Source: Firmicutes bacterium OM04-13BH (GTDB lineage: Bacteria > Bacillota > Clostridia > Lachnospirales > Lachnospiraceae). From it: 64,000 nt of DNA. The translations under genes and the position numbers were made by a program. Numbering within the stretch: the first letter of the stretch is position 1; each line of letters begins with the position of its first letter. The notes beneath the pieces are model-generated. The model did no database searches. It worked only from the letters and a program-made list of their open reading frames with translations, and was not told where the DNA came from. Below, in pieces: positions 10,591-13,382 of this stretch. The stretch is from positions 1-64,000 of the forward strand of contig QULP01000003.1 in assembly GCA_003481745.1 (NCBI GenBank), read 5' to 3'.

Positions 10591-10935
10591 TCACTTTTCT
10601 TTAAAAATAATTTCATCTCCTTCCACCAGTCCAAGTTTTTCTCTTGCTACCTGTTTTGCATATTCATCACTCTGCATATATTCTTTTAATGCTTCAATCT
10701 CTTTTGTGCGCTGCTCCTCTGCTGATATCTGTGCCTTGACTTCTTTTCTCTGGCTTTTATAGTCACCTATTTTTTCTTCTAATGCATAACTTCTTGCCAT
10801 TAAAGAAATCGAAAGTGCAGAAGCAACTAAAATCACACTAATCATCGCCGTTTTGCTTTCCGGTTGTCTATTTTCATCTTTCTTTAATTTTTCTCTTCGT
10901 TTCCGACTGAATTTTTGATTTTCTTTCTTTCTCAT
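10591..10935 (-). CDS. divIC: Septum formation initiator, FtsB/DivIC family
   Basis: Small bitopic cell-division protein that links FtsL/FtsQ to septal wall synthesis. A basic N-terminus of about 30 residues is followed by one membrane helix (MISVILVASALSISLMARSY), a coiled coil (EEKIGDYKSQRKEVKAQISAEEQ) and the conserved end AREKLGLVEGDEIIF. An ATG at 10974 is also in frame, but the ATG at 10935 has a well-placed AGGAAG and gives 114 residues. Even so it overlaps yabQ by 62 nt, so the overlap is real. The position between yabQ and spoIIE is as in Bacillus. Confidence 0.85.
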   Translation of the reverse strand: MRKKENQKFSRKRREKLKKDENRQPESKTAMISVILVASALSISLMARSYALEEKIGDYKSQRKEVKAQISAEEQRTKEIEALKEYMQSDEYAKQVAREKLGLVEGDEIIFKEK

Positions 10936-11374
10936 TCTGATTCTTCCTGACTTTTTGTATCGACTTTTGTTCATACAAAAAAAGTTTAACTCTTTTAATA
11001 CATAATTTCAACCTTTTTCTTCCCCTGTGTAGAGGAGTCAGCAAGATTCCAAATAAAGTTACGATTTTCAACAATAAAAATCCAAACAGTCTCACAATCC
11101 ATCTGCTTATTGTCGCATAATAGAAAAGAGCTCCTGCTGCCATTCCAGCCAGCGCATAAACACGTATCTGACCATTATTTTCCATATATATAACATAAAA
11201 AACAAAAAGACCCGCACTACTCCAATAAATTAAATCCTGTAAATCAATCCAGAAACGGCTGTTCGTCATCACACTGCGCCAGATTCTAAGGCAGTCATAA
11301 AGCAGACCAAGGAAAATCCCCGTCAGGAAAAGTTTCAGAAGAAGCAAAAATTCCTGTTCCATATATTTGCTCAT
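10874..11374 (-). CDS. yabQ: Spore cortex biosynthesis protein YabQ
   Basis: Membrane protein required for spore cortex formation in Bacillus, where it localises around the forespore. The 166 residues show membrane helices near 7-30, 45-62 and 70-95, the family-typical GIFLGLLYDCLRIWR, and a long basic tail. It starts 2 nt after the yabP stop, so the two are co-translated. Its last 62 nt also encode the start of divIC. Expression is expected from the sigma-E-like promoter ahead of yabP. Confidence 0.85.
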   Translation of the reverse strand: MSKYMEQEFLLLLKLFLTGIFLGLLYDCLRIWRSVMTNSRFWIDLQDLIYWSSAGLFVFYVIYMENNGQIRVYALAGMAAGALFYYATISRWIVRLFGFLLLKIVTLFGILLTPLHRGRKRLKLCIKRVKLFLYEQKSIQKVRKNQNEKERKSKIQSETKRKIKER

Positions 11375-11376
11375 CT

Positions 11377-11667
11377 TTATTTAAAAAACCTCTTTATCAT
11401 TCCTTCTTTTCCCTGCACACTTTCTCCCCTTGCCCGGTCGTAAATAAGGCTGTCTACTTTCCCTGCAATGTCTACCTCTTGTTTTTCCAAATCAAGCCGT
11501 GTCACATGCAGTTCTTTTCCCTTTACACTTAAAATACCCAATTCTGTCACCAAACGAATCTCTTCTTCATCAAAACAGAGCACATCACTGACTCCGGTTA
11601 TACTCCCCTTATTTCTTGCACGAAGTTCCAGTTTATGTGCTCTTCTTTCCACCACTTTTTCTTCCAA
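11377..11667 (-). CDS. yabP: Sporulation protein YabP
   Basis: Small sporulation protein of the YabP/YqfC family, associated with spore coat and cortex formation in Bacillus (sigma-E regulon). The family core runs from RRAHKLELRARNKGSITGVS through VLCFDEEEIRLVTELGILSVKG. An ATG at 11730 is in frame, but the extra 21 residues run through a terminator hairpin. A TTG at 11665-11667 preceded by GGGGGA with 9-nt spacing gives 96 residues, the usual size, and I prefer it. The SD lies in the 3' arm of that hairpin (11673-11714). This separates the housekeeping genes hup-rqcP from sporulation genes yabP-yabQ. Confidence 0.85.
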   Translation of the reverse strand: MEEKVVERRAHKLELRARNKGSITGVSDVLCFDEEEIRLVTELGILSVKGKELHVTRLDLEKQEVDIAGKVDSLIYDRARGESVQGKEGMIKRFFK

Positions 11668-11672
11668 AATAA

Positions 11673-11714
11673 AAAATCCCCCAACTCTCTTAAAAAGATT
11701 ATATGGGGGATTTT
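11673..11714 (-). promoter_or_regulatory. Terminator/SD-masking hairpin ahead of yabP
   Basis: On the minus strand AAAATCCCCC (11714-11705), a 22-nt loop, then GGGGGATTTT (11682-11673) continuing as TTATT and the TTG start. The 10-bp stem with T run looks like an intrinsic terminator for hup-rqcP, while its 3' arm is the only SD available to yabP. Confidence 0.75.
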
Positions 11715-11726
11715 CCTCTAATATAC
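11698..11726 (-). promoter_or_regulatory. Candidate sigma-E promoter of yabP-yabQ
   Basis: Minus strand GTATATT (11720-11726), 14-bp spacer, CATATAAT (11698-11705). This is close to the Bacillus sigma-E pattern (ATATT, 13-14 bp, CATACAAT). The start point would fall inside the loop of the hairpin, so the mRNA would lack the masking 5' arm. Confidence 0.55.
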
Positions 11727-11733
11727 ACAAATT

Positions 11734-11973
11734 TTAAAGGTAACGGAACAGCTCGCTTGCTGCTTCTTTTTTCACCGTTTCCTGCACATCCAGCACTTCC
11801 ACTCGAACATTCTTGCTTCCGAACTGGATTTCCAGAATATCTCCTGCTTTTACCTGCGCAGATGCCTTTGCCGGTTTGTCGTTAATCAGAACACGTCCCG
11901 CATCACAGGCTTCATTTGCAACAGTTCTGCGCTTAATCAGACGGGAGACTTTTAAATATTTGTCTAATCTCAT
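11734..11973 (-). CDS. rqcP: RqcP/YabO, S4-domain ribosome quality control protein
   Basis: S4 RNA-binding protein of 79 residues (MRLDKYLKVSRLIKRRTVAN, then ACDAGRVLINDKPAKASAQV). It is the homologue of Bacillus YabO/RqcP, which binds stalled 50S subunits and drives alanine tailing with RqcH. It may also be called an Hsp15-like protein. It follows hup by 3 nt and shares its promoter. It is followed by the hairpin that ends this housekeeping unit before yabP. Confidence 0.92.
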   Translation of the reverse strand: MRLDKYLKVSRLIKRRTVANEACDAGRVLINDKPAKASAQVKAGDILEIQFGSKNVRVEVLDVQETVKKEAASELFRYL

Positions 11974-11976
11974 TTT

Positions 11977-12252
11977 TTATGCGTTTACCATATCTTTTAA
12001 TGCTTTACCAGCTTTAAATTTTGGATTTTTAGAAGCTGCGATTGTCATAGTTTCACCAGTCTGAGGATTTCTTCCTTCTCTTGCTGCTCTTTCAGCTACT
12101 TCGAAAGTACCAAAACCAACTAACTGAACTTTTTCACCTTTCTTTAATTCAGCAGATACTACATCGATAAATGCTTTTAAAGCTGCTTCTGCATCTTTTT
12201 TTGATAACTGAGTTTCTGCTGCCATAGCTGCAACTAATTCTGTTCTGTTCAT
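11977..12252 (-). CDS. hup: HU-type DNA-binding protein
   Basis: Nucleoid protein of the HU/IHF family, 91 residues, full length. The DNA-binding arm signature [22 protein letters not shown] and [16 protein letters not shown] are intact. The start [13 protein letters not shown] follows AGGAGG. It is the first gene of a hup-rqcP unit with a strong promoter, as in clostridia. A highly expressed housekeeping gene is expected. Confidence 0.97.
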
Positions 12253-12336
12253 GAATATTTCCTCCTAAAATAAATAATCTTATTTACAATGTTGATTCTA
12301 ACTGTGGCTGCAAAATACAACCTCAACATACTGTTA

Positions 12337-12365
12337 TTTATACCTTGTTTCCTATAGTTTGTCAA
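12337..12365 (-). promoter_or_regulatory. Sigma-A promoter of hup-rqcP
   Basis: Minus strand TTGACA (12360-12365), 17-bp spacer, TATAAA (12337-12342), about 77 nt upstream of the HU start. Confidence 0.8.
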
Positions 12366-12398
12366 GCGTATTCAAAAAGCCCCGGACATCTTTTTCTC

Positions 12399-13382
12399 TT
12401 ATTTTTCCAATGTGTTGATACTTTCTACAAATTCAAGCCACTTTTCGTACTGAGAAATCAGCTTTTTAAGTTTTTCCAGATTTTTTTTCGGAATCCATAC
12501 TTTATTGTGCGTATAATAATAATTTGCAAGTTTCCAGAATTTTTCCGGATAAGCAAATCGGACGGCAAGATTTTCCCTCTCTTCTTTTATGAGCGGGCGA
12601 ATCTCGCAATAGCTTTGAATCATCTCTTTTCCCAGTTCTTTGTCCCAACCGTGTTTCTCTAATATCTTTCTCATAAACTGATACAAATCTGCCATCTGCA
12701 CATCATAATTCCAATTATCAAAGTTGACAACCGCAGTTTCTGAATCCCACATCAAAATGTTATGCTGATGAAACGCTCCATGGCAGACACAGCCTCTTTC
12801 CAGGCTTACGGTACGCAGTCTGTCATAAGAAGATTGACTGATACGCTTAAAAGCCTCTTCTGCACAGCAAAGATAACGGTCTGCATGTTCCAGATAACAG
12901 CGTTCAAATTCATTTTTCTGATGTTTTTGAAATATAAACTTTTTAATTTTTCTCAATTCCCGATTGTGGCGTTCATATTCGCTCAAAAGAGATTCCCTCA
13001 CATAATGCTCCCAGACCGGCATCTGCATTGTTTTATGTAAGCTGGCAAGTGCTTTTACACTGCGCATGATATCCTTGCGGGACTGTGTATCACATTCTTT
13101 TCCATCGTACCAGTTCTTTACCAGATATGGAATATTTTCTTTATCAACTGTAATATAGTTTTCTTCTTTATTTCGTTTTAGTGTATCTACATGAATTTCT
13201 TTTTGACCTGAAATTTTTTCAAGTAGTTTCGCCTGATATTCTAATTTTCTTGTTGAACCGTAATACTCTCTGATTAAAACAAGCCCCTGCCCGGTCTGGC
13301 AAATTAAAGCACCACGACCTCTGCTTGCAGCCGATGCTTCTAAATCATACTTTTCTAAAATGCTAATCCCCCTGTCATGCAC
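12399..13382 (-). CDS. cotS: CotS-family spore coat protein, kinase-like fold
   Basis: Member of the CotS/YtaA/CotI family, spore coat proteins with an aminoglycoside-phosphotransferase-like fold. Recognised from DRGISILEKYDLEAS, RGRGALICQTGQGLVLIREY and LVKNWYDGKECD. The catalytic loop reads CHGAFHQHNIL, with Ala where kinases have the catalytic Asp (HGDxxxxN), and the metal motif is VNFDNW. It may therefore bind without phosphorylating. The reading frame is open to an ATG at 13454, but the GTG at 13382 with AGGGGGAGG upstream matches the normal family N-terminus (327 residues). A sigma-E-like promoter lies at 13473-13501. It is adjacent to the yabPQ/spoIIE sporulation block. Confidence 0.75.
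   Translation of the reverse strand: MHDRGISILEKYDLEASAASRGRGALICQTGQGLVLIREYYGSTRKLEYQAKLLEKISGQKEIHVDTLKRNKEENYITVDKENIPYLVKNWYDGKECDTQSRKDIMRSVKALASLHKTMQMPVWEHYVRESLLSEYERHNRELRKIKKFIFQKHQKNEFERCYLEHADRYLCCAEEAFKRISQSSYDRLRTVSLERGCVCHGAFHQHNILMWDSETAVVNFDNWNYDVQMADLYQFMRKILEKHGWDKELGKEMIQSYCEIRPLIKEERENLAVRFAYPEKFWKLANYYYTHNKVWIPKKNLEKLKKLISQYEKWLEFVESINTLEK

What the first reader, a model, noticed from the sequence alone, without database searches (positions are those of the whole stretch)
11665..11726. yabP start is welded to a terminator hairpin, with a sigma-E-like start point inside its loop
Seen: a 10-bp GC-rich stem plus T run follows rqcP. Its 3' arm GGGGGATTTT is the only SD for the TTG start of yabP, and CATATAAT with GTATATT 14 bp upstream overlaps the 5' arm. 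Known: yabP is in the sigma-E regulon of Bacillus. Inference: readthrough from hup is stopped or its yabP SD is masked, while sigma-E transcripts start in the loop, lack the 5' arm and are freely translated. One 60-bp element would act as terminator, translational lock and cell-type-specific promoter.
Basis: partly seen in the sequence, partly recalled or inferred. Interest (0 to 1): 0.75.

Follow-up and report, generated by a model that had tools for sequence, protein, structure and literature searches.

The report
Sporulation promoter inside an RBS-masking hairpin
In this gut bacterium, probably a relative of Blautia, the start signal of a spore gene lies inside a hairpin that should stop or mute messages running in from the neighbouring housekeeping genes but would be missing from messages begun in sporulating cells; many related bacteria keep the pairing while changing its letters, and some other spore genes show the same design.

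Summary
The hairpin is real. On the minus strand an 11-bp stem (AAAATCCCCCA 11714-11704, TGGGGGATTTT 11683-11673) lies between rqcP and yabP. Its 5' arm overlaps spacer and -10 of a sigma-E-like promoter (GTATATT-14-CATATAAT); the predicted start point is in the loop; the 3' arm and T run are the SD and spacer of the TTG start at 11667. Predicted fold: read-through leader -20.6 kcal/mol, SD 1% unpaired; loop-initiated RNA -3.1 kcal/mol, SD 68% unpaired.

Comparison supports the pairing. Over 139 thinned yabP loci, promoter arms pair better with their own leaders than with other loci's (-15.3 vs -10.2 kcal/mol; none of 20,000 permutations as low); a control arm shows no effect. Of 46 loci with strong stems 72% have 5 or more T in the last 10 nt before the start, against 11% of 826 ordinary genes.

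spoIVA and spoIIID, fetched as controls, show the same design in about half of 30 loci each, and so does the cwlD-like gene in this window. An 800-kb scan of one relative found hardly any more, so how far it extends is open. Precedents: T4 gene e, I-TevI, B. subtilis sigG. Function is inferred; there are no RNA data.

The parts
11977..12252 (-). hup (HU protein), head of the housekeeping unit
   Evidence: PF00216, 126 bits
11734..11973 (-). rqcP (S4-domain protein; name by position and recall)
   Evidence: PF01479, 43.6 bits; NCBIfam hits only below cut-off
11720..11726 (-). -35 element GTATATT of the sigma-E-like promoter
   Evidence: sequence; score 22.6 with the -10
11704..11714 (-). 5' arm of the hairpin, AAAATCCCCCA
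11698..11705 (-). -10 element CATATAAT
   Evidence: identical in the 19 loci aligned
11690..11692 (-). predicted start point in the loop (6-8 nt after the -10; rule recalled, not mapped)
   Evidence: inference; 11691 used
11673..11683 (-). 3' arm of the hairpin, TGGGGGATTTT
11677..11682 (-). SD-like GGGGGA inside the 3' arm
11668..11676 (-). T run TTTTTTATT: terminator tail and SD-to-start spacer
   Evidence: association with stems in relatives
11377..11667 (-). yabP, TTG start
   Evidence: TIGR02892 78 bits, cut-off 75.4; N terminus by alignment
10874..11374 (-). yabQ, next gene
   Evidence: PF09578, 86 bits
18514..18561 (-). second element of the same design: 14-bp core stem AAAATCCTTTAAAG / CTTTAAAGGATTTT with -10-like CATATACT 18547-18540, before the cwlD-like gene 18507-17824
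   Evidence: CwlD match 201 bits, below the cut-off of 221.6

Best explanation
The element is a sigma-E-type promoter whose spacer and -10 are complementary to the RBS of the gene it serves. RNA that runs in from hup-rqcP contains both arms and folds; it either terminates at the T run directly before the start codon or, if it runs on, hides the SD, so YabP is not made in growing cells. In the mother cell sigma-E polymerase starts in the loop; that RNA has only the 3' arm, so the SD is open and no terminator forms. Shown by sequence and comparison: the parts, their overlap, the keeping of pairing between changing arms, the association of stem and T run. Inferred: start site, sigma-E use, termination, masking, and the purpose (insulating a spore gene from a strong housekeeping neighbour).
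For: Overlap of all parts. SD unpaired 1% in read-through RNA, 68% in loop-initiated RNA, 45% with shuffled spacers; means over 201 loci 21%, 55%, 34%. Cognate arms -15.3 vs non-cognate -10.2 kcal/mol over 139 loci, control arm -8.2 vs -8.0. Stem score 9 or more in 46 of 139 loci vs 8.3% of non-cognate pairs; 46 different stems, several pair types per column. Against nearest neighbours 13 of 15 two-sided and 97 of 149 one-sided changes keep a pair. T run with strong stems, p 1.7e-8. Same design at spoIVA and spoIIID. sigma-E control of yabPQ, cwlD, spoIVA and spoIIID in B. subtilis (PMC517825, abstract start and passages).
Against: No RNA or protein data. The loose folding criterion is met by 115 of 139 loci but also by 64% of spacer-shuffled ones, and the strict promoter-free criterion by only 45 of 139 yabP loci. 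Some loci lack it (one search lists 36 of 201 that fail even the loose test). T run broken in some stem-bearing relatives. In 800 kb of the relative G009, 12 promoter-ORF sites gave none with z below -2.5, its own yabP scoring -1.4. The loci are related, and the permutation tests do not correct for the tree.
Confidence: 0.65

Rival explanations
1. It is only the terminator of hup-rqcP; in a tight gap a spore promoter and SD share its letters for economy, and there is no translational role.
For: T run in the window and in 72% of 46 strong-stem loci; no other terminator found between hup and yabP.
Against: Several relatives keep the stem with a broken T run, and the T run stands after the SD, so masking of run-on RNA follows from the same fold. 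This rival differs from the best explanation in one step only.
Confidence: 0.2
2. The inverted repeat is a DNA operator for a dimeric regulator of the promoter.
For: A palindrome over the -10 is typical of operators (recalled).
Against: Stem letters change freely while pairing is kept (46 different stems in 46 loci); G-U is 86 of 257 internal non-WC positions vs 270 of 1185 in spacer-shuffled controls; association with a T run.
Confidence: 0.06
3. Compositional coincidence: pyrimidine-rich sigma-E spacers pair with purine-rich SD leaders in any genome.
For: Spacer-shuffled loci still meet the loose criterion in 64%; the fold of the window alone is only z -2.1.
Against: Cognate beats non-cognate although all leaders have SDs; T-run association; spoIIR, cwlD and ordinary genes score much lower than spoIVA and spoIIID.
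Confidence: 0.06
4. Transcription starts upstream, the hairpin is part of the normal yabP message and tunes its translation.
For: No start site is mapped; the B. subtilis sigG leader has a small RBS hairpin in its own transcript (PMC5942855, passages).
Against: The best sigma-E-like promoter within 140 nt of the start is the one in the hairpin.
Confidence: 0.03

Closest known systems
B. subtilis sigG (spoIIIG) large read-through hairpin
   Same: Proposed to block translation of read-through RNA from the upstream spoIIG operon; cannot form in RNA from the gene's own promoter (PMC5942855, passages).
   Different: Upstream gene is itself sporulation-specific, promoter is sigma-F/sigma-G type, one gene; the passages seen mention no T-run terminator fused to the RBS.
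T4 gene e and I-TevI (also soc, segB, Aeh1 mobE)
   Same: Long early RNA masks the RBS; the late promoter lies in the DNA of the 5' strand, so late RNA lacks it and is translated (PMC3014915, PMC2988022, passages).
   Different: Phage genes; no terminator described in the passages seen; tested by experiment there, not here.
IS10 read-through protection
   Same: Read-through RNA folds over the transposase RBS, own-promoter RNA does not (recalled; the search was seen as a listing only).
   Different: Mobile element with terminal repeats, no developmental sigma factor.

Membership tests
Promoter-in-hairpin RBS masking (T4 e / sigG kind) | Upstream RNA can form a helix that covers the SD | tested here: met
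   Predicted only: -20.6 kcal/mol, SD 1% unpaired
Promoter-in-hairpin RBS masking (T4 e / sigG kind) | A promoter in the 5' strand or loop yields RNA without the 5' arm | tested here: inconclusive
   Sigma-E-like promoter in place, SD 68% unpaired in the shorter RNA; start not mapped
Promoter-in-hairpin RBS masking (T4 e / sigG kind) | Translation differs between the two RNAs | not testable with these tools
   needs a reporter
Intrinsic terminator | Stable stem followed by a T run | tested here: met
   Window sequence; T run in 72% of 46 strong-stem loci; stem core GC-rich only in part; not listed by the generic scan
Intrinsic terminator | RNA 3' ends at the T run | not testable with these tools
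   needs Term-seq
Sigma-E promoter | -35 and -10 near consensus with about 14 nt between | tested here: met
   Score 22.6 with a home-made matrix; consensus recalled
Sigma-E promoter | Sigma-E-dependent transcription | not testable with these tools
   yabPQ named among sigma-E-controlled genes in B. subtilis (PMC517825, passage)
Any Rfam family | Match at gathering score in 11300-12400 | tested here: not met
   4 matches, all below gathering score and unrelated

The most novel reading that the evidence does not exclude
Lachnospiraceae, and patchily other Clostridia, build a set of mother-cell sporulation genes with a promoter that is the antisense of the gene's own RBS, often with a T run between SD and start. 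One short element is then promoter, anti-read-through terminator and translational lock, so that only RNA begun by the sporulation sigma factor can be read. Some forespore sigma-G genes (spoVT) may do the same with their own promoter type.
Probability: 0.5. Interest if true: 0.85.

Novelty: new variant of a known kind. Interest (0 to 1): 0.7.

Why it matters
Spore genes often stand behind strongly expressed housekeeping genes. A promoter that carries the complement of its own RBS would be a simple, testable way to keep them silent against read-through. It could help to find sporulation promoters and correct start codons in unannotated gut Clostridia (yabP here starts with TTG), and it extends to development in bacteria a trick known mainly from phage T4 and one B. 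subtilis gene.

Tried and rejected
Loose minimum-free-energy counts of a lock were dropped as main evidence because shuffled spacers reach 64%. spoIVA and spoIIID were fetched as negative controls and turned out positive, so spoIIR, spoVT, cwlD and ordinary genes became the comparators. The orientation test (59 of 97 co-directional against 6 of 18 divergent, p 0.04, four genes pooled) is weak: the gene caller was crude and put a minus-strand ORF before 85 of 135 yabP loci, where rqcP often is. In 800 kb of G009, 20 genes of 826 (window included) had a promoter score of 15 or more and 3 of those a strong hairpin, two of them in the window; start picking there prefers ATG and did not list G009's own yabP among the strong hairpins. 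Independent upstream terminators were found in only 2 of 99 yabP loci, too few to test a trade-off. For spoIVA the T run is also high without a stem (4.4 in 5 loci, against 5.3 in 13), so there it says little. Rfam gave nothing. B. subtilis could not be compared: it appears only as a control tally without sequence.

Rows dropped: 244 sequences with a yabP match (window included) gave 220 distinct upstream regions after removal of identical ones and of those with too little upstream sequence or no start; 19 fell out for promoter score under 10, distance or SD position (201); 139 remained after thinning at 0.72 similarity. Of 248 matching genomes only listed places were taken (119 plus the loci), so the set leans to closer relatives. 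The 139 include Ruminococcus and other loci outside Lachnospiraceae and loci without rqcP next door. At phylum level 30 of 204 YabQ loci were taken and YabP found in 26. In some searches spoVT was scored with a sigma-E matrix, the wrong promoter model. In one search some neighbour pairs count in both directions and 84 columns with gaps were set aside.

Papers: nine searches listed no paper that, by title and start of abstract, describes such a terminator-fused promoter and RBS hairpin at sporulation genes of Clostridia. Passages were seen of PMC5942855, PMC517825, PMC2988022 and PMC3014915; no paper was read whole. Most subscription journals are not in that library.

Full report
What is there. 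On its minus strand the window carries hup (12252-11977), rqcP (11973-11734), yabP (TTG at 11667), yabQ, a divIC-like and a spoIIE-like gene (the name rqcP rests on position and recall). Between rqcP and yabP lies an 11-bp hairpin. Its 5' arm AAAATCCCCCA (11714-11704) is the end of the spacer and the first two bases of the -10 of a sigma-E-like promoter (GTATATT 11726-11720, 14 nt, CATATAAT 11705-11698). Its 3' arm TGGGGGATTTT (11683-11673) holds the SD-like GGGGGA, and the T run TTTTTTATT is also the spacer to the TTG start.

Is it more than chance? On its own, modestly: the strand 11721-11640 folds at -20.6 kcal/mol, z -2.1, with 9 of 200 shuffles as good. RNA beginning at 11691, in the loop, folds at -3.1 kcal/mol. 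The SD is 1% unpaired in the longer RNA and 68% in the shorter; with shuffled spacers the longer form averages 45%. No other minus-strand terminator was listed between hup and yabP.

Comparison. A protein search gave 43 relatives and a genome scan 72 loci. The closest 14 loci, L001-L014, nearly all titled Blautia, show by eye a hairpin at the same spot with the -10 in it; other loci titled Blautia (L020, L021, L024, L038, L040) do not, and L038 has a separate terminator-like hairpin before its promoter. CATATAAT is identical in the 19 loci aligned. More distant loci have other stems with the -10 (often AATATACT) inside the 5' arm, for example L036, L046, L048 and L050. The 84%-identical relative P0008 carries, as an apparent N-terminal extension, residues that read like the same hairpin. 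A search of 397 genomes of the family gave 248 with a match; 119 listed places were fetched. In all, 244 sequences gave 220 distinct upstream regions, 201 with a usable promoter call, 139 after thinning.

Covariation. (a) The promoter arm pairs with its own leader at -15.3 kcal/mol on average and with other loci's leaders at -10.2; none of 20,000 permutations came near (lowest mean -11.2). The own leader is the very best partner in only 22 of 139 and in the top 5% in 58. The 26 nt upstream of the -35 give -8.2 against -8.0. (b) Ungapped stems scoring 9 or more occur in 46 of 139 loci and in 8.3% of non-cognate pairs; the 46 stems are 46 different sequences, and columns hold several pair types, for example T-A 26, C-G 13, T-G 4 at one column. 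(c) Against nearest neighbours, 15 stem columns changed on both sides and 13 still pair; 149 changed on one side, 97 still pair, 52 do not (some pairs counted both ways). (d) G-U is 86 of 257 internal non-WC positions against 270 of 1185 in spacer-shuffled controls. On the other side: the loose fold criterion is met by 115 of 139 loci but also by 64% of spacer-shuffled ones, and none of these tests corrects for the tree.

Terminator character. Loci with strong stems (46) have on average 4.9 T in the last 10 nt before the start, loci with weak stems (62) 2.1 (p 1.7e-8); 72% against 6.5% have five or more, and 11% of 826 ordinary genes of G009 and the window do. The T run was not used to choose the stems, though T in the spacer can lengthen a stem whose 5' arm has A. 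The rule is not universal: L003 and L081 keep the stem with a broken T run.

Not only yabP. Under a strict promoter-free test (80-nt fold, z -2.5 or lower, at least 4 SD bases paired upstream) 19 of 30 spoIVA, 15 of 30 spoIIID, 45 of 139 yabP, 10 of 30 spoVT, 3 of 29 cwlD and 2 of 26 spoIIR loci pass, against 36 of 826 ordinary genes, which include the window's two. Cognate exceeds non-cognate for yabP, spoIVA and spoIIID (no permutation of 5000), for cwlD at p 0.007 (12 loci), not for spoVT under a sigma-E matrix (8 loci, p 0.2). Stems of 9 or more: 13 of 23 spoIVA, 13 of 28 spoIIID, 2 of 12 cwlD, 1 of 8 spoVT. That yabPQ, cwlD, spoIVA and spoIIID are under sigma-E in B. subtilis is in PMC517825; sigma-G for spoVT and sigma-F for spoIIR are recalled. 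In the window a cwlD-like gene (18507-17824; 201 bits, below the curated cut-off) has a near-perfect example, z -5.2, behind a co-directional gene without an NCBIfam match. Against a regulon-wide reading: in 800 kb of G009, 12 promoter-ORF sites had no strong hairpin. At phylum level 6 of 26 yabP loci pass the strict test, and cognate exceeds non-cognate (-14.3 against -12.0, p 0.01, 15 loci).

How it most likely works. Read-through RNA from hup-rqcP holds both arms and terminates or is masked; sigma-E RNA begins in the loop, lacks the 5' arm and is translated. Overlap of the parts, keeping of the pairing and the link to the T run are shown; start site, sigma factor, termination and masking are inferred.

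Known relatives. In T4, gene e and I-TevI have late promoters placed so that late RNA lacks the 5' part of an RBS-masking structure (PMC3014915, PMC2988022; passages). B. subtilis sigG is proposed to have a large hairpin that blocks read-through RNA but cannot form in its own transcript (PMC5942855; passages). IS10 is recalled. New here are the fusion with a T-run terminator, recurrence at several sigma-E genes and conservation with covariation in a family. Nine searches listed no such description, judged by titles and opening lines.

Verdict. It is a new variant of a known kind, more interesting than a single case because it recurs at other sporulation genes.

Noticed in passing
window 18561-18505 (-): A second promoter-in-hairpin element before a cwlD-like gene, with near-perfect stem and T run.
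   Followed up: partly
L246-L305: spoIVA and spoIIID of Lachnospiraceae, fetched as negative controls, show the same design in about half of the loci.
   Followed up: partly
L412, L416 and other spoVT loci in L406-L435: Some spoVT leaders have a far-upstream complement of the SD (CCTCCATTTAC with GTAAATGGAGG in L412), perhaps in a sigma-G promoter spacer; 10 of 30 pass the strict test.
   Followed up: no
L004 against window 11377-12252: RqcP identical and HU 99% identical to the window's, but YabP only 58% over the matched part: fast divergence or recombination of yabP.
   Followed up: no
window 10874-10974: The longest divIC-like ORF overlaps the end of yabQ by 101 bases; divIC may depend on the yabPQ message or start further in.
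   Followed up: no
window 29757 (+) and 46605 (-): Two weaker promoter-plus-stem matches (promoter scores about 12) in the scan, possibly chance.
   Followed up: no
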